A DNA stretch of 64,000 nucleotides from Daphnia pulex (lineage: Eukaryota; Arthropoda; Branchiopoda; Diplostraca; Daphniidae): NCBI RefSeq assembly GCF_021134715.1, contig NC_060027.1:3844001-3908000 (forward strand), in the 5' to 3' direction. The notes under the pieces were generated by a model. The model was not told the origin of the DNA and did no database searches. It worked only from the letters and a program-made list of their open reading frames with translations. The number at the start of each line of letters is the position of its first letter. The first letter of the stretch is position 1. This document shows positions 4,478 to 38,600 of the stretch, piece by piece. The translations under genes and the position numbers were made by a program.

Positions 4478-5607
4478 TTAATTCATTTCAACGTCCCCAA
4501 TTTTAGACATGTAGGATTCAATATCATTGTCTAGAGCGCTACGAGTCTTTTGCATGTACTGATCCAATTGCTTGTCCAAATCTTCTTTGCTGACCTTGGT
4601 AGAGCCACCTCGACCACGCCCTCGACCACGTCCGGATGTCTGACCGCGCGGAGATGTCGGCAAGCTGCTTCCTCCACGACTGGGTCCCTTACCACCACGT
4701 TGGCCTCGTCCTCTTCCTCTTCCACGCTGGATACGACTTTCAGCTTGCCCGGTAATCAATGAAGATGTCATCTGCCCTCGACCACCTCGTCTTCCTCTCA
4801 CGCTGCCTCTAGCACGCGAAGGTTTGGTCGGCGAACGATTGGTTGTGGCAGCAACGGGGGCTGGCTTTTTCGATGGAGAAATGATTCTTCCGCGAGTGCT
4901 TCTCTTGTTTCCTTGTCCACCGCCACGAACGATTGTTTGGCTGACAATGGGCTTCAGTCCGCCCCGGCCTCGAATTATCTTTGTTGGGGTGACCGTTTGC
5001 CCTTGCGTTCGACTTCCTCGCAGAGATCCTCGCGACTGACTCCCGCGACCAGCTCCACGATTGGTTGTGAGTCTCCTTTGAGTTTGGGTGGCCGTTCCGC
5101 GAAATCGAGTACTGGTGTTTACTGTGGCTCCAAGGCGTTGTTTGATGCTTTTCTGAATAACAGTATAAATGATGTAAGTATATCTGGTTATGAATTAAAA
5201 ACGAGGAATTGCACCTTTTTCAGTTTCAAAGCAGCACTGACTGATGCATTTCGTCTTTCCATCTGTTGAGCTAGTCTGCTATTCTTGCTTGATGCCTTTT
5301 GAAGATTAGCTGCATTATTTCTAGCCCCTTGCAGTTTTCCAGCCAATTTCTGACCCCCTGCTGAGCTTCGTAATTTGGAGAATCTGTAACGAAAAATTTT
5401 CATGCGTTAAAAATCAGCAAATGAGAAGAAAATCAACACATACTTTATAAAAGCAAGGAAATTCAATGTTTAACAGGGGGAAAATTGCGGCAAACAACTA
5501 TTTCAATCGCATATACGACATAACAAACCCAAATTGCCTAATGATTTATACCTTTCATGTAAGGATAAGGAAGTTGAATTATTTGGTACTCTGCCTCCTG
5601 AAGCCAT
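4478..5607 (-). CDS. CHTOP: Chromatin target of PRMT1 (CHTOP/FOP), TREX mRNA-export factor
   Basis: Three exons join in phase on the minus strand: 5607-5552, 5383-5215 and 5152-4478 (introns 168 and 62 bp), giving 299 residues. The start MASGGRVP is followed by the conserved LHERF segment, split across the first intron. Next come SRLAQQMERRNASVSAALKL and SIKQRLG, which match the CHTOP N-terminal core. The centre is a long Arg/Gly-rich region, including GRGRGRGQRGG and SGRGRGRGRGG; such regions are methylated by PRMT1/PRMT5 in the family. The C-terminal helix KEDLDKQLDQYMQKTRSALD is the family signature. CHTOP works in the nucleus in the TREX complex with UAP56 and NXF1. The first exon was missed by a simple start-codon search because only 18 codons precede the donor. 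Confidence 0.93.
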
Positions 5608-6055: not shown

Positions 6056-7401
6056 TTAGGCGGCCACTACTGTAGGAGTACTGCTTCCGTTTTCCTCAGC
6101 TTTAACTGCCGGAACGGCTTTCTCTGGATTGAATGTTGTCCAGCGAGCTTCATCTAGTGCATCCCACAAATCCTGATTGCGCTCAAAAAGTTCTCTGTTC
6201 AGTTTCTCAATATCGACGGGTGTATTGTGTTCTATGAGCTCAAACTCATCTTCTTCAGGTTGAGCAGGCATTTGCCCAGCAACGCCATATCCGGCATAAG
6301 CTTGTTGACCATCATAGCCGTATCCGCCTTGGTAACCATATCCTTGCCAGCCACCGTACTGTTGCCAATAGGCTGGATCGACGTACTGTCCGTAGCCAGC
6401 TGCTGCAGCAGCAGCTTGAGGTTGAACTGGCTGGCCGCTGGCTGCGGCCTGGACAATTGACGAAGCAATCGATGCAGTTAACGTAGAAGTAGAAGATGTA
6501 CTGGATGAGGATCCTAAAAGTTAAAAGAGTATGAAATGAAATGTACTCCAAAGAAAAGTTTAAGCGTGCATTTACCAGGTATCATGTTGTAATTACGAGG
6601 AATAGCCAATGAAACTCTAAGTGGGTTGCTGCCGAGTCCTCTGTGACCTTGCATATGTGTCAGCGCATCTTTGTAATCACTTTCATTAGAAAAATTAACA
6701 AACGCATAGCCGCGACTTTCTCCATTGCTGCCTCTGACCACTAAACATAAAATACGAGAAGTTCAGATAATTGCCAATAAAATCATTACAGAAATTTTAC
6801 AAATTACCCTTTGCCAATTGAACTGAGTTATATTTTGCAGAAAAACATTTGTAAAGGCCATAGTCATCTACATCAGCACTCAAATCTCCCACCCACAGTG
6901 CATGATCGGCTGTAGAACCTTTAGTGTTTGTGCTGTGATTTAACTTGAAACGGCTTGGCTAAAAGTGGGAAAACAGATAATATAACTAATATAAATTATG
7001 GTAAATTAAAAGTTAATACACTACCGGCTGACTGTATGGAATGATTTTGCCATTCAATTTGTGTAGAACTTCCATTGCTTGCTTTTCATCTCGAAACTGA
7101 CAAAATCCAAAACCAGCAGGTAATCCAGTGTGCTTATTTCTCATGACTTTGATGGCTTCAGGTTTTTCTCCCATTAATTCAAAAGATCGCATAAGAAATT
7201 CCTCTGTCATGTAAGGTTCTAACTAAAATATAAACAGTAAACACATTAGAGGATTCCATTCGACACGAGACTTGCATTGAGCCGGCAAAAAAGTGAATAC
7301 AGATCACCGAACACGTTTACATTTGATACACATTTTGGCCAAAAAGGACCAGAAAAACTTACCCCACCAATCCATAAACTGCTTGCCCTTTCTAAAGCCA
7401 T
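6056..7401 (-). CDS. TRNAU1AP: tRNA selenocysteine-associated protein 1 (SECp43), two RRMs
   Basis: Five exons on the minus strand join in phase: 7401-7363, 7222-7025, 6958-6808, 6740-6576 and 6513-6056. The product is 336 residues. RRM1 starts at about residue 9 with LWIGGLEPYM (RNP2) and carries AGFGFCQF (RNP1). RRM2 starts at about residue 96 with LWVGDLSADVDDYGLY and carries RGYAFVNF. The phrase RFKLN between the RRMs and the VDDYGLY segment match human TRNAU1AP. The C-terminal third is Ser/Thr-rich, then Gly/Tyr/Gln-rich, and ends in an acidic tail with NRELFERNQDLWDALDEARW, as in the family. SECp43 binds tRNA-Sec and supports its methylation and selenoprotein synthesis. It is longer than the human protein (287 residues) because of the low-complexity insert. 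The gene shares a divergent promoter with the gene starting at 7944. Confidence 0.93.
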
Positions 7402-11288: not shown

Positions 11289-11558
11289 GCGAAAATAATA
11301 ACAGGTATTGCATTAATCTTCTCCTGTTTCTAATTATTTGTAGCATGCCACTACCAAGCCCGTTTTAACCTCCATTCTCTCTGCCTCTATTTTATCAAAG
11401 GACTAAAGCATCAGGTAATAGAAGCGAAAATAATAACAGGTATTGCATTAATCTTCTCCTGTTTCTAATTATTTGTAGCATGCCACTACCAAGCCCGTTT
11501 TAACCTCCATTCTCTCTGCCTCTATTTTATCAAAGGACTAAAGCATCAGGTAATAGAA
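11289..11558 (+). repeat. 135-bp perfect or near-perfect tandem duplication
   Basis: Two adjacent copies start at 11289 and 11424, both beginning GCGAAAATAATAACAGG and both running through CATGCCACTACCAAGCCCG to CATCAGGTAATAGAA. By eye they are identical, so the duplication is recent. Confidence 0.9.
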
Positions 11559-13409: not shown

Positions 13410-13415
13410 TTTATT
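13410..13415 (-). terminator. Candidate polyadenylation signal of the coiled-coil gene
   Basis: TTTATT on the plus strand gives AATAAA on the minus strand, about 110 nt downstream of the stop codon at 13525. Confidence 0.45.
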
Positions 13416-13524: not shown

Positions 13525-16500
13525 TTAATTTTGGTTGTTTGTGTTGTCGTCTGCTTTAGGATCATCATGGAAGAGACTGTCAGCTTTTTCTCGGAGATGC
13601 GAAGCCTTTTCTTCTATCAAAAACCCAGAGTGCTCCAGTAATTGGATCCAAGTCTTTGGAGGTACTCTAGTTAACACTCCATGTTTGACCAACCATTCCT
13701 CTAAAGTTTCATTAATTCCAACCGGATCTTCTTTATCTTCCGGTTTTAACAAATCAGATGGTGCTTCTTCTTTCGCATGTCTTACAGCTTGTTGTAATGT
13801 TTTCAGAGCTTCTGTCAGTGCTGCAGCTTGTTCAGTGGCAAGCGCTTCAGCTTGTTGTCGGGCAGTGGCTGCAGAATGTACCACTTCATTTTTCTCATCG
13901 GTCAATTTCAATAGCAGTTCTTTTTGATTGTGATACTCTTCCGTCAAAGTTTTGATATCTTCTTTGCACGAGACTAAAGCGGATTTTTCTTCATCGAAGT
14001 TGGATTTTAGCTGATCATATTGCGCTTTCTGGTTCATCAATTCGGTGTTTGCCTGTTCCAAAAGTCGATTCTTATCTTCCGTTTCCGTTTGAGCAGCTTT
14101 GACTGCATCCGCCAATGCAGTCTTTTCGAGTTCGATAGTGGATTTTTGATTATTGAAGTGCGCTTTTAAGCTCATCAACTGAGTTTGCGTTTCATCCAAA
14201 AGTTTGCTATTTTTTTCTTTTTCCGTTTTAGCGAGGTTAATCTCATCCACTAAAGCTGATTTTTCTTCATCGAAGTTGGATTTTAGCTGATCAATGTGCG
14301 CTTTCTGGTTCATCAATTCGGTGTTTGCCTGTTCCAAAAGTCGATTCTTGTCTTCCGTTTCCGTTTGAGCAGCTTTAACTGCATCCGTCAATGCAGATTT
14401 TTCGAGTTCGATAGTGGATTTTTGGTTATTGAAGTGAGCTTTTAAGCTCGTCAACTCGGTTTGCGTTGCATCCAAAAGTTTGCTATTTTTTTCTTTTTCC
14501 GTTTCAGCGAGGTTAGTCGCATCCACTAAAGCGGATTTTAGCTGATCATATTGCGCTTTCTGGTTCATCAATTCAGTTTTTGCCTGTTCCAAAAGTCGAT
14601 TCTTGTCTTCCGTTTCCGTTTGAGCAGCTTTAACTGCATCCGTCAATGCAGATTTTTCGAGTTCGATAGTGGATTTTTGATTATTGAAGTGCGCTTTTAA
14701 GCTCATCAACTGTGTTTGCGTTTCATCCAAAAGTTTGCTATTTTTTTCTTTTTCCGTTTTAGCGAGGTTAATCTCATCCACTAAAGCTGATTTTTCTTCA
14801 TCGAAGTTGGATTTTAGCTGATCATATTGCGCTTTCTGGTTCATCAATTCAGTTTTTGCCTGTTCCAAAAGTCGATTCTTGTCTTCCGTTTCCGTTTGAG
14901 CAGCTTTAACTGCATCCGTCAATGCAGATTTTTCGAGTTCGATAGTGGATTTTTGGTTATTGAAGTGAGCTTTTAAGCTCGTCAACTCGGTTTGCGTTGC
15001 ATCCAAAAGTTTGCTATTTTTTTCTTTTTCCGTTTCAGCGAGGTTAGTCGCATCCACTAAAGCGGATTTTAGCTGATCATATTGCGCTTTCTGGTTCATC
15101 AATTCAGTTTTTGCCTGTTCCAAAAGTCGATTCTTGTCTTCCGTTTCCGTTTGAGCAGCTTTAACTGCATCTGTCAATGCAGATTTTTCGAGTTCGATAG
15201 TGGATTTTTGATTATTGAAGTGCGCTTTTAAGCTCATCAACTGTGTTTGCGTTTCATCCAAAAGTTTGCTATTTTTTTCTTTTTCCGTTTTAGCGAGGTT
15301 AATCTCATCCACTAAAGCTGATTTTTCTTCATCGAAGTTGGATTTTAGCTGATCATATTGCGCTTTCTGGTTCATCAATTCAGTTTTTGACTGTTCCAAA
15401 AGTCGATTCTTGTCTTCCGTTTCCGTTTGAGCAGCTTTAACTGCATCCGTCAATGCAGATTTTTCGAGTTCGATAGTGGATTTTTGGTTATTGAAGTGAG
15501 CTTTTAAGCTCGTCAACTCGGTTTGCGTTGCATCCAAAAGTTTGCTATTTTTTTCTTTTTCCGTTTCAGCGAGGTTAGTCGCATCCACTAAAGCGGATTT
15601 GAGCTGATCATATTGCGCTTTCTGGTTCATCAATTCGGTGTTTGCCTGTTCCAAAAGTCGATTCTTGTCTTCCGTTTCCGTTTGAGCAGCTTTAACTGCA
15701 TCCGTCAATGCAGTCTTTTCGAGTTCGATAGTGGATTTTTGATTATTGAAGTGCGCTTTTAAGCTCATCAACTTAGTTTGCGTTTCATCCAAAAGTTTGC
15801 TATTTTTTTCTTTTTCCGTTTTAGCGAGGTTAATCTCATCCACTAAAGCTGATTTTTCTTCATCGAAGTTGGATTTTAGCTGATCAATGTGCGCTTTCTG
15901 GTTCATCAATTCGGTGTTTGCCTGTTCCAAAAGTCGATTCTTGTCTTCCGTTTCCGTTTGAGCAGCTTTAACTGCATCCGTCAATGCAGATTTTTCGAGT
16001 TCGATAGTGGATTTTTGGTTATTGAAGTGAGCTTTTAAGCTCGTCAACTCGGTTTGCGTTGCATCCAAAAGTTTGCTATTTTTTTCTTTTTCCGTTTCAG
16101 CGAGGTTAGTCGCATCCACTAAAGCGGATTTGAGCTGATCATATTGCGCTTTCTGGTTCATCAATTCGGTGTTTGCCTGTTCCAAAAGTCGATTCTTGTC
16201 TTCCGTTTCCGTTTGAGCAGCTTTAACTGCATCCGTCAATGCAGTCTTTTCGAGTTCGATAGTGGATTTTTGATTATTGAAGTGCGCTTTTAAGCTCATC
16301 AACTTAGTTTGCGTTTCATCCAAAAGTTTGCTTTGTTTTTCTTTTTCCGTTTTAGCGAGGTTAATCTCATCCACTAAAGCTGATTTTTCTTCATCGAAGT
16401 TGGATTTTAGCTGATCAATGTGCGCTTTCTGGTTCATCAATTCGGTGTTTGCCTGTTCCAAAAGTCGATTCTTGTCTTCCGTTTCCGTTTGAGCAGCTTT

Positions 16501-19500
16501 AACTGCATCCGTCAATGCAGATTTTTCGAGTTCGATAGTGGATTTTTGATTATTGAAGTGCGCTTTTAAGCTCATCAACTGAGTTTGCGTTTCATCCAAA
16601 AGTTTGCTATTTTTTTCTTTTTCCGTTTTAGCGAGGTTAATCTCATCCACTAAAGCTGATTTTTCTTCATCGAAGTTGGATTTTAGCTGATCATATTGCG
16701 CTTTCTGGTTCATCAATTCAGTTTTTGCCTGTTCCAAAAGTCGATTCTTGTCTTCCGTTTCCGTTTGAGCAGCTTTAACTGCATCCGTCAATGCAGATTT
16801 TTCGAGTTCGATAGTGGATTTTTGATTATTGAAGTGCGCTTTTAAGCTCGTCAACTCGGTTTGCGTTTCATCCAAAAGTTTGCTTTGTTTTTCTTTTTCT
16901 TCATCGAAGTTGGATTTTAGCTGATCATATTGCGCTTTCTGGTTCATCAATTCGGTGTTTGCCTGTTCCAAAAGTCGATTCTTGTCTTCCGTTTCCGTTT
17001 GAGCAGCTTTAACTGCATCCGTCAATGCAGATTTTTCGAGTTCGATAGTGGATTTTTGATTATTGAAGTGCGCTTTTAAGCTCATCAACTCGGTTTGCGT
17101 TTCATCCAAAAGTTTGCTTTGTTTTTCTTTTTCTTCATCGAAGTTGGATTTTAGCTGATCATATTGCGCTTTCTGGTTCATCAATTCGGTGTTTGCCTGT
17201 TCCAAAAGTCGATTCTTGTCTTCCGTTTCCGTTTGAGCAGCTTTAACTGCATCCGTCAATGCAGATTTTTCGAGTTCGATAGTGGATTTTTGATTATTGA
17301 AGTGCGCTTTTAAGCTCATCAACTGAGTTTGCGTTTCATCCAAAAGTTTGCTATTTTTTTCTTTTTCCGTTTTAGCGAGGTTAATCTCATCCACTAAAGC
17401 TGATTTTTCTTCATCGAAGTTGGATTTTAGCTGATCATATTGCGCTTTCTGGTTCATCAATTCGGTGTTTGCCTGTTCCAAAAGTCGATTCTTGTCTTCC
17501 GTTTCCGTTTGAGCAGCTTTAACTGCATCCGTCAATGCAGATTTTTCGAGTTCGATAGTGGATTTTTGGTTATTGAAGTGAGCTTTTAAGCTCGTCAACT
17601 CGGTTTGCGTTGCATCCAAAAGTTTGCTATTTTTTTCTTTTTCCGTTTCAGCGAGGTTAGTCGCATCCACTAAAGCGGATTTGAGCTGATCATATTGCGC
17701 TTTCTGGTTCATCAATTCGGTGTTTGCCTGTTCCAAAAGTCGATTCTTGTCTTCCGTTTCCGTTTGAGCAGCTTTAACTGCATCCGTCAATGCAGTCTTT
17801 TCGAGTTCGATAGTGGATTTTTGATTATTGAAGTGCGCTTTTAAGCTCATCAACTTAGTTTGCGTTTCATCCAAAAGTTTGCTTTGTTTTTCTTTTTCCG
17901 TTTTAGCGAGGTTAATCTCATCCACTAAAGCTGATTTTTCTTCATCGAAGTTGGATTTTAGCTGATCAATGTGCGCTTTCTGGTTCATCAATTCGGTGTT
18001 TGCCTGTTCCAAAAGTCGATTCTTGTCTTCCGTTTCCGTTTGAGCAGCTTTAACTGCATCCGTCAATGCAGATTTTTCGAGTTCGATAGTGGATTTTTGA
18101 TTATTGAAGTGCGCTTTTAAGCTCATCAACTGAATTTGCGTTTCATCCAAAAGTTTGCTATTTTTTTCTTTTTCCGTTTTAGCGAGGTTAATCTCATCCA
18201 CTAAAGCTGATTTTTCTTCATCGAAGTTGGATTTTAGCTGATCATATTGCGCTTTCTGGTTCATCAATTCAGTTTTTGCCTGTTCCAAAAGTCGATTCTT
18301 GTCTTCCGTTTCCGTTTGAGCAGCTTTAACTGCATCCGTCAATGCAGATTTTTCGAGTTCGATAGTGGATTTTTGATTATTGAAGTGCGCTTTTAAGCTC
18401 GTCAACTCGGTTTGCGTTTCATCCAAAAGTTTGCTTTGTTTTTCTTTTTCTTCATCGAAGTTGGATTTTAGCTGATCATATTGCGCTTTCTGGTTCATCA
18501 ATTCGGTGTTTGCCTGTTCCAAAAGTCGATTCTTGTCTTCCGTTTCCGTTTGAGCAGCTTTAACTGCATCCGTCAATGCAGATTTTTCGAGTTCGATAGT
18601 GGATTTTTGATTATTGAAGTGCGCTTTTAAGCTCATCAACTCGGTTTGCGTTTCATCCAAAAGTTTGCTTTGTTTTTCTTTTTCTTCATCGAAGTTGGAT
18701 TTTAGCTGATCATTTTGCGCTTTCTGGTTCATCAATTCGGTGTTTGCCTGTTCCAAAAGTCGATTCTTGTCTTCCGTTTCCGTTTGAGCAGCTTTAACTG
18801 CATCCGTCAATGCAGATTTTTCGAGTTCGATAGTGGATTTTTGATTATTGAAGTGCGCTTTTAAGCTCATCAACTGAGTTTGCGTTTCATCCAAAAGTTT
18901 GCTATTTTTTTCTTTTTCCGTTTTAGCGAGGTTAATCTCATCCACTAAAGCTGATTTTTCTTCATCGAAGTTGGATTTTAGCTGATCATATTGCGCTTTC
19001 TGGTTCATCAATTCGGTGTTTGCCTGTTCCAAAAGTCGATTCTTGTCTTCCGTTTCCGTTTGAGCAGCTTTAACTGCATCCGTCAATGCAGATTTTTCGA
19101 GTTCGATAGTGGATTTTTGATTATTGAAGTGCGCTTTTAAGCTCGTCAACTCGGTTTGCGTTTCATCCAAAAGTTTGCTTTGTTTTTCTTTTTCTTCATC
19201 GAAGTTGGATTTTAGCTGATCATATTGCGCTTTCTGGTTCATCAATTCGGTGTTTGCCTGTTCCAAAAGTCGATTCTTGTCTTCCGTTTCCGTTTGAGCA
19301 GCTTTAACTGCATCCGTCAATGCAGATTTTTCGAGTTCGATAGTGGATTTTTGATTATTGAAGTGCGCTTTTAAGCTCATCAACTGAGTTTGCGTTTCAT
19401 CCAAAAGTTTGCTATTTTTTTCTTTTTCCGTTTTAGCGAGGTTAATCTCATCCACTAAAGCTGATTTTTCTTCATCGAAGATGGATTTTAGCTGATCATA

Positions 19501-21111
19501 TTGCGCTTTCTGGTTCATCAATTCGGTGTTTGCCTGTTCCAAAAGTCGATTCTTGTCTTCCGTTTCCGTTTGAGCAGCTTTAACTGCATCCGTCAATGCA
19601 GATTTTTCGAGTTCGATAGTGGATTTTTGATTATTGAAGTGCGCTTTTAAGCTCGTCAACTCGGTTTGCGTTTCATCCAAAAGTTTGCTTTGTTTTTCTT
19701 TTTCTTCATCGAAGTTGGATTTTAGCTGATCATATTGCCCTTTCTGGTTCATCAATTCGGTGTTTGCCTGTTCCAAAAGTCGATTCTTGTCTTCCGTTTC
19801 CGTTTGAGCAGCTTTAACTGCATCCGTCAATGCAGATTTTTCGAGTTCGATAGTGGATTTTTGATTATTGAAGTGCGCTTTTAAGCTCGTCAACTCGGTT
19901 TGCGTTTCATCCAAAAGTTTGCTTTGTTTTTCTTTTTCTTCATCGAAGTTGGATTTTAGCTGATCATATTGCGCTTTCTGGTTCATCAATTCGGTGTTTG
20001 CCTGTTCCAAAAGTCGATTCTTGTCTTCCGTTTCCGCTTGAGCAGCTTTAACTGCATCCGTCAATGCAGATTTTTCGAGTTCGATAGTGGATTTTTGATT
20101 ATTGAAGTGCGCTTTTAAGCTCGTCAACTCGGTTTGCGTTTCATCCAAAAGTTTGCTTTGTTTTTCTTTTTCTTCATCGAAGTTGGATTTTAGCTGATCA
20201 TATTGCGCTTTCTGGTTCATCAATTCGGTGTTTGCCTGTTCCAAAAGTCGATTCTTGTCTTCCGTTTCCGTTTGAGCAGCTTTAACTGCATCCGTCAATG
20301 CAGATTTTTCGAGTTCGATAGTGGATTTTTGATTATTGAAGTGCGCTTTTAAGCTCATCAACTGAGTTTGCGTTTCATCCAAAAGTTTGCTTTTTTTTTC
20401 TTTTTCCGTTTTAGCGAGGTTAATCTCATCCACTAAAGCTGATTTTTCTTCATCGAAGTTGGATTTTAGCTGATCAATGTGCGCTTTCTGGTTCATCAAT
20501 TCGGTGTTTGCCTGTTCCAAAAGTCGATTCTTGTCTTCCGTTTCCGTTTGAGCAGCTTTAACTGCATCCGCCAATGCAGTCTTTTCGAGTTCGATAGTGG
20601 ATATTTTATTATTGAATTGCGCTTTTAAGCTCGTCAACTCGGTTTTCGTTTTATCCAAAAGTTTGCTAGTTTTTTCTTTTTTCGATCTAGCGATGTTAAT
20701 CGCTTCCACTAAAGCGGATTTTTCTTCATCGAGGATTGATTTTTGTAGATCAAAGTTCGCTTTTAGTTCCGTCAGTTTTGTTTTAGTCTGCTCTAAAACT
20801 AAAAGTCTAATTTTTTCCTCGTCTGTTTTTGCGAGTTTATTCGCATCCACTAAATCGGATTTTTCTTTATCGAGGATTGATTTTTGTAGATCAAAGTTCG
20901 CTTTCAGTTCAGTCATTTCGTAGTTTGCCTGTTCCAAAAGTTGACTATTTTCCTCGTTTTTTGATTTAGCGTTTTCGATTTTGGTTTCTTTTGGTGTGAC
21001 ATGTTTGGTAGTTTTGTCTGATAAAAACACACTTTGTAATAAATCGATAATCAACGCCCATCCGTAAAGTAAGAATATTCCAACAGTGAACACAGCGAGT
21101 GAAGTAAACAT
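13525..21111 (-). CDS. Giant membrane-anchored repetitive coiled-coil protein, 2,528 residues, intronless
   Basis: One uninterrupted frame of 7.6 kb. Residues 3-27 (SLAVFTVGIFLLYGWALII and on) form a single hydrophobic helix, likely a signal anchor. Residues 40-163 hold diverged repeats. Residues 164-2380 are 25 full units plus one partial unit of a repeat containing IELEKSALTDAVKAAQ and NRLLEQANTELMNQK. The tail (2381-2528) is unique. It has an Ala/Gln-rich helix and then a small domain (NETLEEWLVKHGVL, WIQLLEHSGFLIEEK). Leu/Ile/Ala/Val spacing with abundant Lys/Glu/Gln predicts a long coiled coil. Copies are nearly identical at the DNA level, so expansion is recent. Lack of introns contrasts with the neighbouring genes. 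I do not recognise a family. Myosin-tail or tropomyosin-like motor domains are absent. A TATA box lies 73 bp upstream. Copy number could be wrong if the assembly collapsed repeats. Confidence 0.85.
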   Translation of the reverse strand: MFTSLAVFTVGIFLLYGWALIIDLLQSVFLSDKTTKHVTPKETKIENAKSKNEENSQLLEQANYEMTELKANFDLQKSILDKEKSDLVDANKLAKTDEEKIRLLVLEQTKTKLTELKANFDLQKSILDEEKSALVEAINIARSKKEKTSKLLDKTKTELTSLKAQFNNKISTIELEKTALADAVKAAQTETEDKNRLLEQANTELMNQKAHIDQLKSNFDEEKSALVDEINLAKTEKEKKSKLLDETQTQLMSLKAHFNNQKSTIELEKSALTDAVKAAQTETEDKNRLLEQANTELMNQKAQYDQLKSNFDEEKEKQSKLLDETQTELTSLKAHFNNQKSTIELEKSALTDAVKAAQAETEDKNRLLEQANTELMNQKAQYDQLKSNFDEEKEKQSKLLDETQTELTSLKAHFNNQKSTIELEKSALTDAVKAAQTETEDKNRLLEQANTELMNQKGQYDQLKSNFDEEKEKQSKLLDETQTELTSLKAHFNNQKSTIELEKSALTDAVKAAQTETEDKNRLLEQANTELMNQKAQYDQLKSIFDEEKSALVDEINLAKTEKEKNSKLLDETQTQLMSLKAHFNNQKSTIELEKSALTDAVKAAQTETEDKNRLLEQANTELMNQKAQYDQLKSNFDEEKEKQSKLLDETQTELTSLKAHFNNQKSTIELEKSALTDAVKAAQTETEDKNRLLEQANTELMNQKAQYDQLKSNFDEEKSALVDEINLAKTEKEKNSKLLDETQTQLMSLKAHFNNQKSTIELEKSALTDAVKAAQTETEDKNRLLEQANTELMNQKAQNDQLKSNFDEEKEKQSKLLDETQTELMSLKAHFNNQKSTIELEKSALTDAVKAAQTETEDKNRLLEQANTELMNQKAQYDQLKSNFDEEKEKQSKLLDETQTELTSLKAHFNNQKSTIELEKSALTDAVKAAQTETEDKNRLLEQAKTELMNQKAQYDQLKSNFDEEKSALVDEINLAKTEKEKNSKLLDETQIQLMSLKAHFNNQKSTIELEKSALTDAVKAAQTETEDKNRLLEQANTELMNQKAHIDQLKSNFDEEKSALVDEINLAKTEKEKQSKLLDETQTKLMSLKAHFNNQKSTIELEKTALTDAVKAAQTETEDKNRLLEQANTELMNQKAQYDQLKSALVDATNLAETEKEKNSKLLDATQTELTSLKAHFNNQKSTIELEKSALTDAVKAAQTETEDKNRLLEQANTELMNQKAQYDQLKSNFDEEKSALVDEINLAKTEKEKNSKLLDETQTQLMSLKAHFNNQKSTIELEKSALTDAVKAAQTETEDKNRLLEQANTELMNQKAQYDQLKSNFDEEKEKQSKLLDETQTELMSLKAHFNNQKSTIELEKSALTDAVKAAQTETEDKNRLLEQANTELMNQKAQYDQLKSNFDEEKEKQSKLLDETQTELTSLKAHFNNQKSTIELEKSALTDAVKAAQTETEDKNRLLEQAKTELMNQKAQYDQLKSNFDEEKSALVDEINLAKTEKEKNSKLLDETQTQLMSLKAHFNNQKSTIELEKSALTDAVKAAQTETEDKNRLLEQANTELMNQKAHIDQLKSNFDEEKSALVDEINLAKTEKEKQSKLLDETQTKLMSLKAHFNNQKSTIELEKTALTDAVKAAQTETEDKNRLLEQANTELMNQKAQYDQLKSALVDATNLAETEKEKNSKLLDATQTELTSLKAHFNNQKSTIELEKSALTDAVKAAQTETEDKNRLLEQANTELMNQKAHIDQLKSNFDEEKSALVDEINLAKTEKEKNSKLLDETQTKLMSLKAHFNNQKSTIELEKTALTDAVKAAQTETEDKNRLLEQANTELMNQKAQYDQLKSALVDATNLAETEKEKNSKLLDATQTELTSLKAHFNNQKSTIELEKSALTDAVKAAQTETEDKNRLLEQSKTELMNQKAQYDQLKSNFDEEKSALVDEINLAKTEKEKNSKLLDETQTQLMSLKAHFNNQKSTIELEKSALTDAVKAAQTETEDKNRLLEQAKTELMNQKAQYDQLKSALVDATNLAETEKEKNSKLLDATQTELTSLKAHFNNQKSTIELEKSALTDAVKAAQTETEDKNRLLEQAKTELMNQKAQYDQLKSNFDEEKSALVDEINLAKTEKEKNSKLLDETQTQLMSLKAHFNNQKSTIELEKSALTDAVKAAQTETEDKNRLLEQAKTELMNQKAQYDQLKSALVDATNLAETEKEKNSKLLDATQTELTSLKAHFNNQKSTIELEKSALTDAVKAAQTETEDKNRLLEQANTELMNQKAHIDQLKSNFDEEKSALVDEINLAKTEKEKNSKLLDETQTQLMSLKAHFNNQKSTIELEKTALADAVKAAQTETEDKNRLLEQANTELMNQKAQYDQLKSNFDEEKSALVSCKEDIKTLTEEYHNQKELLLKLTDEKNEVVHSAATARQQAEALATEQAAALTEALKTLQQAVRHAKEEAPSDLLKPEDKEDPVGINETLEEWLVKHGVLTRVPPKTWIQLLEHSGFLIEEKASHLREKADSLFHDDPKADDNTNNQN
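13972..20622 (-). repeat. Coding tandem array: 25 full units of 276/255/234 bp with higher-order structure
   Basis: Reading the protein N to C, I count 12 units of 92 residues (A), 8 of 78 (B) and 5 of 85 (C). B lacks a 14-residue segment (SALVDEINLAKTEK) and C lacks seven residues around NFDEEKS. The order is A B B B A B A B B A A C A B B A A C A C A C A C A. The six-unit block A-B-B-A-A-C (517 residues, 1,551 bp) is present twice head to tail, at about 17584-19134 and 16033-17583. An A-C dimer (531 bp) is iterated toward the C-terminus (about 14440-16563). Spot checks of DNA offsets (276, 255, 531 and 1,551 bp) confirm the periods. Confidence 0.92.
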
Positions 21112-21183
21112 TTTTGTTGCTGAAGTTTTGGGTTTTAGTTGATTTGTTCAACAGTAGTACCTTATGCGGTGTTTTCGTGGGTT

Positions 21184-21190: not shown

Positions 21191-21483
21191 GATTCTGCTC
21201 TGTCATCTTTGATTAGCATGTATGCCGTTTACCGCGTTTTTGCGTATATTTATATTTATAGATTTCCAATTTCGAAATTATTTGCATATTTCAATGCAGA
21301 AAAATTTTTCACTTATATTTCAAACAAGAAATTCACAAAATTACTTAAATTTCTGTTGTCTATTTCCGATTTCTGCGAATTTAATGTCCATTTGCTTCCG
21401 GTGTAATTCCAGCACAAAAAAATAGTTGTGAATTTTGACACTAGATGGCTGTAAAATTGTTCCGTCCAGTCTTCTGTCATGAA

Positions 21484-28940: not shown

Positions 28941-29339
28941 CTTAAGTGTATGTGTGTATTGTATGTATGTATTTATTGTATAATTAATGTGACTGTTTAA
29001 TGTGGTGGAATTGAGGGTGGAGGTGGGACATTAAAGCAATTCCTTTTAAAGTTTAAAGTGACATATCATTTTCAGATTATGCAACCAAATATTATTTGCA
29101 ATTCCTTTGTTAAGCCAACTTCAGTTAAAAATGGAGCTGAACTTTTAAAATATAGAGTAACTCCAATCAGTAGGTCTCTTTCGTTACTTACCCTGAAAAT
29201 GATGTCAGAATCTGTTCAAGTGCAAAGCGACTTAACATATGAAAGTCGCAATGTCAAAAGGCTTGAAGGTTTTAAAGATTCGTAGAAGATAGTTACCATT
29301 AAAAAATGTATTTCCTCATTTCATATCAACAAAAACTCC
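28941..29339. other. Intergenic, nothing recognised
   Basis: AT-rich sequence between the MITE and the Tyr-rich array. TGTATG-type simple repeats occur near 28950-28975. No supported frame. Confidence 0.4.
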
Positions 29340-30330
29340 AAGTGATTAGTAACCCTTTTGACATGCCCGACAACTTTGAACACCATTACACAATACGCAA
29401 TTTCAGTTTTGGTATTTAGGAGCCTCCCTTTAGTAAACTGGAGAAGCGAAGGTTGTGATGTAATATCCAGGTGCCTTAGTGGTGTAGTAAGTCGGGGCAG
29501 TGGAAAACTTCGGAACTTCGGTGTAGTAGGTGGAATCAGCGTAAGTAGTGGTATAATACTCAGATGCCTTGCTAAAGTAGTACTTTGAAGTTTCAGTGTA
29601 GTAGCTAAGAGCAACGTAGGTTGTAGTGTCATACTCGGGTGCCTTGGTTTAGTGGTTATGTAGTACTTGGAAGCCTCGTTGTAGCAGCTGATGGCAGCGT
29701 GGGTTGTAGCGTAATATGCGACCTCTGCGGAACAGTGTAAAAGGCTGGGGCAGGATACGTGGTGGTGTAAGTACTCCGCTGCCTTCGTGGTGTAGTACTC
29801 CGCTGCCTTCGTGGTGTAGTACTCCGGTTGTTGCGTATGTTTTTGTCATGCAGTAAGCCGGCTGCGTTGTGGTTTGGTATCCACCATACCCACGAGACAT
29901 CGATACACTAGTGGCTGACCCAACCACCAAGGATACAACAACCAACAGCAGGACGACGCCATAGTTAACTAGACGGTAAAAAAATTGAACAATTTTAAAA
30001 ATTTCAATAACAGGCATATTAACATTGAACAGAAAAAAATACTGATACAAAACTCCATGTAAAAACAGAATATTTACCATTTGGTTGTAATACTCGGTGG
30101 CTTGGTGTAGTAAACAGAAGCCTCAGTTTTGTAGTAGCTTGGAGCAGAGTAATACTTGGGTTCCTCAGTGTAGTAAACTGGGGCACACGTACGTGGTTGT
30201 GTAATATGTGGCCTCTTCGGTGTAGTAGTTGGGAACTTCGTCATAGCATCTAGGTGTAGCGTAGGTTGAGGTGTAGCAAACTGGTGTCTCGGTGTAGTAT
30301 TTCAGTTCAACGTAGTACGAAGGAGCAGCT
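29340..30330 (-). pseudogene. Tyr/Thr-rich secreted repeat protein, module 1, frameshifted
   Basis: The minus strand carries a signal-peptide exon (about 29969-29880) reading VNYGVVLLLVVVSLVVGSAT, then a Tyr/Thr-rich stretch. The repeat frame, with phrases such as EYYTTKAAEYYTTK and YYTEVPKF, is interrupted several times. The signal-peptide frame instead runs into GVLHHEGSGVLHHEGSGVL before a stop, because the frame slips by one base after YATT. Another block of the same YYTEA-type coding lies at 30080-30330, upstream of the signal exon. I recognise the composition as that of arthropod extracellular or cuticle-associated proteins but cannot name a family. The shifts make this copy non-functional as read, unless sequencing errors are involved. 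Confidence 0.6.
29771..29826 (-). repeat. 24-bp tandem repeat in module 1
   Basis: GTACTCCGCTGCCTTCGTGG and the four following bases repeat at 29771 and 29795 and begin again at 29819. On the minus strand, in the original frame, it encodes EYYTTKAA, so a coding repeat of eight residues is iterating. Confidence 0.8.
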
Positions 30331-30336
30331 GCTGTG

Positions 30337-30793
30337 TTATATCTGGGCTACGTGGTACTTGGTCACTCCAGTTGTGGTTGTGCAGTTCGGGGCAGAGTAG
30401 TACTTGTGCGGTTCGGTGTAGTACTTGACCGCTTTAGTATTGAAATATGCTGGAGCCTCGGTGTAGTAGGATGGGGCAGCATTCGTAGTCGTGTAGTACT
30501 TGGGGACTTCGGTGTAGTAAGTAGATGTTGCGTATGTTGACTCTGTTGTGTAGTAAGGCGGCGGCGTGGTGTAGTATTCTTTCTCTGCTGTAGCATCCAC
30601 CCATGTGCAGGAAACATCGGTACACTCGTGGTCGACCCATAAACTAACGATACAACAGCAAACAGCAGCACGGCGCCATAGTTAACTTTCCTATGAACGA
30701 TTTGAACATTAATTATTGAATTTACTAGTCACATCAACTGAAATCAAGGTGAAATTGATTCACTTCTCGAAATAAAAATGAATGTTTACCCAT
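30337..30793 (-). pseudogene. Tyr/Thr-rich secreted repeat protein, module 2, frameshifted
   Basis: Exon 1 has only ATGG (30793-30790) before a GTAAAC donor. Exon 2 begins after CATAGGAAAG with TTAACTATGG, giving MVNYGAVLLFAVVSLVYGST, a clear signal peptide. That frame continues into an unlikely Thr/Arg/Gln-rich sequence to a stop at about 30363. The expected Tyr-rich frame (KEYYTTPPPYYTTES, YYTEVPKYYTT, YYTEAPAYF) is open just one base away, down to 30337. A single-base indel near 30590-30620 would explain this. The TATA promoter at 30902 is intact. It could be a young pseudogene, an error, or a gene translated with a shift. Confidence 0.65.
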
Positions 30794-37000: not shown

Positions 37001-38600
37001 AATCAAATTCATGGCCCTCGTCTAGAAGCCTCGAGTAGAAAAACTAATAACACAATAACATCCACGTCAGTCATCTTTCTCGAGGGCTTCTCACAATTAC
37101 TAGGAAAAACCTTGAATATTTCATTTCATTTCACTTTGTTAGGTAGTTGAACTACTACAGTAGTGCGTTTCATTCCTCTTCACTATTTAAATCGCTACAT
37201 CCATCGTGTCTAGTTGATTTAATCGAAAATAATAAATAAGACGGGTCAGTTATTCAGCCTCCCGCGAGCTTTAATGAGAATTTCGGATCAAAGGCGATCT
37301 AGTGAAAATAACAGGGTTAGATTCGAACCTTGAAATCCACCCAGGTAACCGGCGAGGGCTAACAACTGTTTGCCCAAAGGCGGATGCGAATCGAAGAAGA
37401 AAGTCTGCTTCTGGTAGAGTCCGGCATAGCGGCCGTAATGTAGCTCGTCAAAGACAATGCTGTTGGGCTGATCCAAAGCGTAGAACCGTGTAGCCAATGC
37501 GACACCAAACAGCAGCATGGGTAGTAAATTAAAGTGACAAGTGACGGCCAACGTAGGGAGGTCAGACAGGGCTGTGCCGGCCGTTGCAGCCCCCGCTTTG
37601 CCGCCACTTCGCTTCTTCTTCTCAGATTTGCTTGGCGAGGCTTTCTTGGCGACAGTCTCCTCGGCCAATTCTTCCGGCAAAGCTTCGGGTGTCGATTCAC
37701 CGTCGCCCTGAAATAGAAAAATTAAAAAATTAAATGAATTACAGCGACACGCAAAACAAGAGCGAATGTTTAATTCAAGTAACACATGTGTGACATCTGT
37801 GACGAGCATGAAATAAAAACAGATTTACATTAGCTGGTATACGTCACGTTTTTAGAAAGAAAAAAAAGATGTGTCAAATTAAACAAGCTTTAGCCATTTC
37901 AAGGCCAATATATTCGTTTCCCTTTCAAAGACGTGTGTGCAGCAGGGACTGGCTCTTTCTTTATTACGACGATAGAAAATGGGAGGAGGAGGGGGGAGTG
38001 CTTGCTACCTGGATGGAAAGAACAACAAGCCAAGGACGAGAGTTCAGCCACCCTTACGGCAAAGCCGTCTATGGCAAAACCGCGCATACGTACACGTCGA
38101 CAAATGCACGTGAAAATAGATGGAGCAGAAAAGAAGTTTCCCTTTTTTTCTTAAAGCAGTATAACTCAATAATACTACCCGCATGAACGACACACAGGAA
38201 GTATGGAATGAACGAAATTTACCCCCTGTGTGTAAAGAATTGGTTTTATGTACATCCTAGTTCCACACCAGGAATTCTGAATTTAACAGTCTACCTCACA
38301 TTGATACGCATGAACAGTTTAAAAATCAGATGGCCTTAAAGTAGGATTTGGATGCAGTTTTTTAAAACGACAGCTGTCAAAATTTAAAAGATAATATGAG
38401 GCTTAATAATAGTGTAAGAGAAATGCATACACCGACATTACAGTAAATTGCATTTCGTTAAAATTGAAAGTGTTGAAGAGAACTGAATGACACCTTACCT
38501 CATCCCTTGGATCTACGGCTGGATTGGGAATTTCCTTGTTCTTTTCATTTTTGCCTTTGCTGCGATTCACTTTTCTGTTTTTAACTTCTGTGTCAACCAT
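34043..38600 (-). CDS. POMT1: Protein O-mannosyltransferase 1 (rotated abdomen orthologue)
   Basis: Thirteen exons join in phase on the minus strand: 38600-38499, 37707-37329, 36786-36610, 36524-36332, 36243-35991, 35912-35692, 35612-35483, 35365-35252, 35191-35038, 34982-34765, 34681-34555, 34481-34307 and 34229-34043. The product is 809 residues (human POMT1 747). After a Lys-rich, presumably cytosolic N-terminus come membrane helices. The catalytic-loop motif FDELHYGRY has its acidic pair at about residues 121-122, followed by [23 protein letters not shown] domains cover about 375-560 ([16 protein letters not shown] just before, [25 protein letters not shown]). Several C-terminal helices end in [13 protein letters not shown]. 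The enzyme works in the ER with POMT2, transferring mannose from dolichyl-phosphate mannose to Ser/Thr, notably on dystroglycan. It looks intact. The first two introns of about 0.8 and 0.5 kb are larger than the rest. Confidence 0.95.

What the first reader, a model, noticed from the sequence alone, without database searches (positions are those of the whole stretch)
13972..20622. Coiled-coil repeat units come in three lengths that differ by whole heptads
The 25 units are 92, 85 or 78 residues. The 85- and 78-residue forms lack exactly 7 and 14 residues, that is one and two heptads, so every length change keeps the coiled-coil register (seen directly). Ninety-two is not a multiple of seven but equals ten heptads plus two 11-residue repeats, so each unit may contain fixed stutters (inference). 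This suggests selection on rod geometry while length evolves freely: a genetically tunable molecular ruler or tether anchored by an N-terminal membrane helix.
Basis: partly seen in the sequence, partly recalled or inferred. Interest (0 to 1): 0.82.

Follow-up and report, generated by a model that had tools for sequence, protein, structure and literature searches.

The report
Giant repeat-built coiled-coil gene family
A crustacean-like genome carries a small family of long rod-shaped membrane proteins built from one repeated coiled-coil unit; most length changes inside the unit remove whole coiled-coil periods, but ordinary DNA slippage and recombination explain much of that pattern.

Summary
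Window 13525-21111 (-) encodes a single-frame 2,528-residue protein: N-terminal hydrophobic helix, 25 units (12 of 92, 8 of 78, 5 of 85 residues), and a 148-residue tail ending in an orphan helical domain. The 92-residue unit is two 46-residue halves, each about five heptads plus one 11-residue stutter. The gene is one of five long copies, with five remnants, in the same genome. In the five copies 78 units were counted: 92, 85, 78 or 74 residues. The 74 form, in one copy, is the 85 form minus 11 residues, so "steps of seven" fails but "steps of 7 or 11" holds inside units. Selection on rod geometry is not shown. The 78 units reflect three in-unit events; two lie on 6-bp direct repeats; a fourth in-frame event (copy E, 45 residues, at a 10-bp direct repeat before the array) does not keep register; core residues are no more conserved than others; two of five long copies are frame-broken. 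Best reading: a lineage-specific membrane-anchored coiled-coil rod, probably a tether, whose array changes by unequal homologous exchange, which keeps register by homology, plus occasional slippage filtered mainly for reading frame. A ruler function is untested.

The parts
13525..21111 (-). coding frame of copy B, 2,528 aa, no intron seen in it
   Evidence: open frame; no transcript evidence
21253..21260 (-). TATAAATA, possible TATA box, about 140 bases before the ATG
   Evidence: read; present in all five long copies
20977..21111 (-). N-terminal 45 residues with the hydrophobic helix (membrane anchor, inferred)
   Evidence: sequence; seven places in the genome match the first 49 residues at E up to 10
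20614..20976 (-). diverged half-units before the array
14155..20613 (-). 25 complete units: 12 of 92, 8 of 78, 5 of 85 residues
13972..14154 (-). last partial unit
13528..13971 (-). 148-residue tail: helix, then orphan small helical domain
13410..13415 (-). AATAAA, possible polyadenylation signal
   Evidence: read; present in all five long copies

Best explanation
This is a lineage-specific family of long coiled-coil rods, probably membrane-anchored. SHOWN: five long paralogues share upstream region, N-terminal hydrophobic helix, tandem array and C-terminal tail; counted array units are 92, 85, 78 or 74 aa; each unit form permits an unbroken 3-4 core path; arrays differ in unit number and order. 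INFERRED: the protein dimerises as a parallel rod of roughly 165-360 nm, most likely on the cytosolic face of a membrane (a Lys-rich flank follows the anchor), and its C-terminal domain contacts something at a distance: it works as a tether. Unit number changes by unequal homologous exchange between units (97.5-99% identical within a copy), which keeps register without selection. Shorter unit forms arose by rare deletion inside the unit (two at 6-bp direct repeats), passed a filter for reading frame and perhaps for coil phase, and were copied through the arrays.
For: Unit lengths: 37 x 92, 26 x 78, 13 x 85, 2 x 74 of 78 counted in 5 copies. Register model: no 3-3 step in A, B or C; 4-4 stutters 1.83 per unit in six-copy runs of 92, 85 and 78 (two each, one lost at the edge) and 0.83 for 74. 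Longest exact direct repeats 693 bp in B, 668 in C, 459 in A; 56 of 58 distinct unit sequences occur in one copy only. Halves only 63.8% identical, and no 46-residue step among the 78 units. The -7 and -14 deletions start at 6-bp repeats; remnant G has a 39-aa half-unit, an independent -7 at the equivalent KS...KS place. C-terminal pN/pS of A-D against E 0.17-0.25. Flanks: 20 indel events, 3 of 20 multiples of three, against one frame break seen in the five arrays (D).
Against: No transcript or protein evidence. A 45-residue deletion before the array of E is in frame but not 7a+11b, and the register model puts its only 3-3 step of A, B, C, E there. N-terminal changes show no clear constraint (pN/pS 0.27 to 2.37; B against C 8 nonsynonymous, 0 synonymous). 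Core positions are not more conserved than others among units. The register score does not single out 7 and 11: mean loss is as small for 3- and 4-residue deletions, and for the -11 site several other sizes (4, 7, 8, 14, 15) score as well or better in most settings. D is frame-broken and E lacks its last ten residues. Topology, oligomer state and tether role are inferred from sequence alone; the C-terminal domain has no family or fold match.
Confidence: 0.58

Rival explanations
1. Selection on superhelix phase and rod geometry is the main cause: deletions of other lengths arise but are removed, and unit number is tuned.
For: All in-unit steps in the five long copies are 7, 14 or 11; an independent -7 in remnant G; -7 and -11 rank in the best 5-7% of in-unit deletions of 1-22 residues; -11 has at most 1 bp of microhomology by eye; graded lengths of the open copies.
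Against: Three or four events only; -7 and -14 lie at 6-bp repeats; -14 ranks only in the best 25-35%; the 45-residue change in E breaks the rule; core not conserved above the rest; about 40% of random in-frame sizes up to 45 are 7a+11b.
Confidence: 0.2
2. Purely mutational: repeat turnover and slippage in a gene under weak or no constraint. Register is kept because homology and heptad-spaced direct repeats make it so; the copies are decaying.
For: Two of five long copies broken; five remnants; microhomology at -7, -14 and the 45-residue deletion; unit pN/pS 0.48-0.65; core not conserved.
Against: Open frames of 1,225, 1,919 and 2,528 codons; C-terminal pN/pS 0.17-0.25 against E; flank indels are mostly not multiples of three (17 of 20).
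Confidence: 0.22

Closest known systems
Kinectin / p180 (RRBP1) type ER membrane rods (recalled; only a search listing seen)
   Same: short N-terminus, N-terminal membrane anchor, very long coiled coil; p180 also carries a tandem repeat (recalled)
   Different: no Pfam match to such a family at E up to 1; here the tandem repeat is itself the coiled coil, and there is an orphan C-terminal domain
Size-variable coiled-coil surface proteins: streptococcal M protein (recalled) and Plasmodium vivax MSP3-gamma (PMC7335089, passages)
   Same: coiled coil whose length varies between copies or alleles, with recombination proposed
   Different: MSP3-gamma has no tandem amino-acid repeats and shows phase shifts of every size from +1 to +6; here the counted units change only by 7, 11 or 14
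Length-conserved coiled coils such as Caenorhabditis synaptonemal-complex proteins (PMC8598163, passages)
   Same: the proposed principle that selection acts on coiled-coil length rather than sequence
   Different: there indels are depleted and length is stable; here array length differs about twofold between open copies

Membership tests
Continuous coiled coil with hendecad stutters | core positions at alternating 3-4 spacing, departures as 4-4 only | tested here: met
   own register model with a generic core table: A, B and C have no 3-3 step and one 4-4-4 run each; E has one 3-3 step, before its array. A trained predictor was not on hand
Continuous coiled coil with hendecad stutters | core positions more conserved than the surface | tested here: not met
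   among 37 units of 92: 10 of 26 core and 21 of 66 other positions vary, p 0.63
Intermediate filament (PF00038) | Pfam score above the curated cut-off | tested here: not met
   11 bits against 40
Ish1 domain (PF10281) for the C-terminal domain | Pfam score above the curated cut-off | tested here: not met
   13.4 bits against 26.6, E 0.1; short helices predicted, no solved-structure match
Kinectin / p180 family | sequence match to the family | tested here: not met
   Pfam scan of the whole protein at E up to 1 lists no such family
Kinectin / p180-like mode of action | N-terminal anchor with the rod in the cytosol | not testable with these tools
   flanking charges suggest it; needs localisation
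SMC (TIGR02168) | NCBIfam score above cut-off | tested here: not met
   19.1 bits against 567.35: generic coiled-coil likeness

The most novel reading that the evidence does not exclude
A self-quantised ruler family: paralogues of one membrane-anchored rod form a graded set of tether lengths (about 165, 270 and 360 nm for the open copies), and within the array the genome changes length almost only in coil-compatible quanta (7, 11, 14, whole units, blocks of units), because the heptad code writes the direct repeats that slippage uses, homology keeps larger steps in phase, and selection removes the rest.
Probability: 0.1. Interest if true: 0.7.

Novelty: new variant of a known kind. Interest (0 to 1): 0.36.

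Why it matters
It is a natural series of coiled-coil length variants in close paralogues, in which the idea that indels must respect the coiled-coil period can be tested against a mutational null, including a counter-example in copy E. If the protein proves to be a tether, paralogues and alleles offer a genetic handle on spacer length. It also suggests that a periodic fold can bias its own indels through the DNA that encodes it.

Tried and rejected

Mobile element: downstream, the homology of B to C and D stops about 2.8 kb, and to E about 2.6 kb, after the start of the tail, to A about 1.1 kb; upstream, C, D and E share only about 0.4 kb and A about 2.8 kb or more with B. Uneven ends suggest segmental duplication rather than a transposon; I did not look for target-site duplications. 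A neighbouring gene on + at about 13.1-13.4 kb: an 80-aa read of two possible exons meets a TGA in all four places that match its first part and has no Pfam hit; dropped.

Core conservation as a sign of selection on packing: negative. Literature: no paper holds Daphnia + coiled-coil + tandem repeat + intronless; four hold Daphnia + coiled-coil + tandem repeats, none on such a gene as far as title and start of abstract tell. That is not proof that the family is undescribed.

Rows dropped: unit counts take only stretches between successive anchors. The diverged half-units before the array, the last partial unit of each copy, and the stretch of D around its frame break are not counted; remnants F, G, H, I, J are not in the 78.

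Full report
WHAT IS THERE. The window is bases 3,844,001-3,908,000 of contig C11 of a 133.2 Mb genome in 13 contigs. The minus-strand frame 13525-21147 is open for 2,540 codons, 2,528 aa from the ATG at 21111. It has a hydrophobic N-terminal helix, diverged half-units, 25 complete units, a last partial unit and a 148-aa tail. TATAAATA lies about 140 bases before the ATG and AATAAA about 110 bases after the stop; both are present in the five long copies. The protein has one glycosylation sequon and one cysteine, both in the tail.

THE OBSERVATION. The counts 12 x 92, 8 x 78 and 5 x 85 are exact. The 92-residue unit is a dimer of two 46-residue halves, 63.8% identical in DNA and 41.3% in protein. 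Remnant G has half-unit spacings of 39, 46, 46 and, past a frame break, 46, 46, without the two-half order as far as I can see, so 46 is probably the older repeat and the short forms are deletions (inference).

REGISTER. I scored core positions with a generic hydrophobic-preference table of my own and allowed steps of 3 or 4, with penalties for 4-4 and 3-3 (first 45 and last 150 residues left out). In A, B and C the path has no 3-3 step and one 4-4-4 run. E has one 3-3 step, before its array. In runs of six consensus units there are 1.83 4-4 stutters per unit for 92, 85 and 78 (two each, one lost at the edge) and 0.83 for 74. So each half is five, four or three heptads plus one hendecad, and the 74 form has one half of four plain heptads. 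The table is approximate.

THE FAMILY. A search with the C-terminal domain finds nine places at E up to 0.001; a search with the N-terminal 166 aa adds one on C7. Five are long copies on C11 between 3.43 and 4.21 Mb: A (open, 1,225 aa), B (the window, 2,528), C (open, 1,919), D (split by a frame break into stretches of 452 and 1,142 aa) and E (1,367 aa; a stop removes the last ten residues of the tail). Remnants: G, F and J on C11, H on C6 and I on C7. The tool warns that its counts of repeats and large families are lower bounds. In the five long copies 78 units were counted: 37 of 92, 26 of 78, 13 of 85 and 2 of 74. The 74 form is an 85 form without an 11-residue stretch and occurs twice, in E only.

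A COUNTER-EXAMPLE. Before the array, A, B, C and D have 166 residues and E has 121. The alignment shows one clean 135-bp, 45-residue deletion in E, with the 10-bp string ACGAGGAAAA at both edges (by eye). It keeps the frame, but 45 is not a sum of sevens and elevens, and the register model puts E's 3-3 step there. So of four distinct in-frame deletions in the long copies (7, 14, 11, 45), three are coil-compatible. About 40% of sizes from 1 to 45 are compatible anyway.

HOW THE ARRAYS CHANGE. Of 78 units, 58 DNA sequences are distinct, and 2 of those 58 occur in more than one copy. The longest exact direct repeats are 693 bp in B, 668 in C, 459 in A, 372 in E and 1,090 in the second part of D. 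Units of one length differ by 1.0-2.5% within a copy and 2.0-3.9% between copies. This is what unequal exchange or conversion between whole units would give. Because halves are only 63.8% alike, exchange out of phase by half a unit should be rare, and none is seen among the 78 units. At this level homology keeps the register without selection.

THE SHORT FORMS. In the 92-unit consensus there are 25 places where a deletion of up to 135 bp would be flanked by at least 6 bp of direct repeat; 14 are in frame and 9 of the 14 are coil-compatible. Up to 20 residues, 3 of 7 in-frame sites are compatible; the actual -7 and -14 breakpoints are two of these three. Remnant G carries a 39-residue half-unit, an independent -7 at the equivalent place. 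The -11 junction shows at most 1 bp of microhomology by eye. By the register score, adjusted for length, -7 is matched or beaten by 5.7% of in-unit deletions of 1-22 residues, -11 by 5.2% and -14 by 31% (over three penalty settings 5.6-6.7%, 4.8-5.2%, 25-35%). The same score finds mean losses for 3- and 4-residue deletions as small as for 7, and at the -11 site other sizes (7, 8, 14, 15 among them) do as well or better in most settings, so it does not single out 7 and 11. Three events, two with a mutational reason, cannot prove selection. The heptad periodicity seems to write its own slippage sites.

SELECTION. C-terminal pN/pS (Nei-Gojobori, uncorrected) is 0.17-0.25 for A-D against E, 0.33 for E against remnant G, 0.40-0.47 for A-D against G, and 0.00-0.70 among A-D with few changes. 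N-terminal values (A-D) run from 0.27 to 2.37, undefined for B against C (8 nonsynonymous, 0 synonymous). Units: 0.65 (92), 0.48 (85), 0.48 (78). Core positions vary as often as the rest, 10 of 26 against 21 of 66. Flanks of A-E (about 360 bp upstream, 650 bp downstream) show 20 indel events, of which 3 are multiples of three and none is 21, 33 or 42 bp. The old remnant H has one half-unit spacing of 47, not a compatible length, and one of 43 by my own count from the printed translation, which would be compatible.

WHAT IT IS LIKELY TO BE. The hydrophobic stretch is long for a cleaved signal and a Lys-rich flank follows it, so I infer an anchor with the rod in the cytosol, like kinectin or p180 (recalled). 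At 0.1485 nm per residue the helical span would be 165 nm (A), 188 (E), 268 (C) and 359 (B). The C-terminal domain gives a four-helix single-sequence model (mean pLDDT 70) without a fold match. A tether is the likeliest role; cargo and membrane are unknown.

LITERATURE. All by passages only: PMC8598163 reports depletion of indels in synaptonemal coiled coils; PMC9369452 defines stutters, stammers and hendecads; PMC7335089 reports all phase shifts +1 to +6 in PvMSP3-gamma; PMC4350178 treats coiled-coil substitution patterns. I found no paper on this family; those searches are narrow and cover open-licence papers only.

CHANGE AFTER CHECKING. 

Noticed in passing
copy E, G000 C11:3776.4-3780.6 kb (loci L033, L052, L042): The C-terminal tail of E is far more diverged at synonymous sites from A-D (pS 0.15-0.16) than its flanks (96.6% and 98.1% identical to B), which suggests a gene-conversion patch from an unseen relative.
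   Followed up: partly
window 18849-15748: Unit order 78,78,92,92,85,92 occurs twice in a row in B (1,551 bp each); C and D show repeated 78+92 pairs instead.
   Followed up: partly
window 11289-11558: Perfect 135-bp tandem duplication close to the downstream end of the homology shared by B, C and D.
   Followed up: no
window 29321-30728 (-): Short frames rich in YYTT-type repeats, reminiscent (recall) of proteins abundant in Daphnia.
   Followed up: no
window 4478-5194, 6056-6520 and 37288-37824 (-): Frames matching FoP_duplication, Trnau1ap and PMT domains: ordinary eukaryotic neighbours.
   Followed up: no
window 20614-21111 against copy C: N-terminal 166 aa: eight nonsynonymous and no synonymous differences between B and C; too few to claim positive selection.
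   Followed up: no
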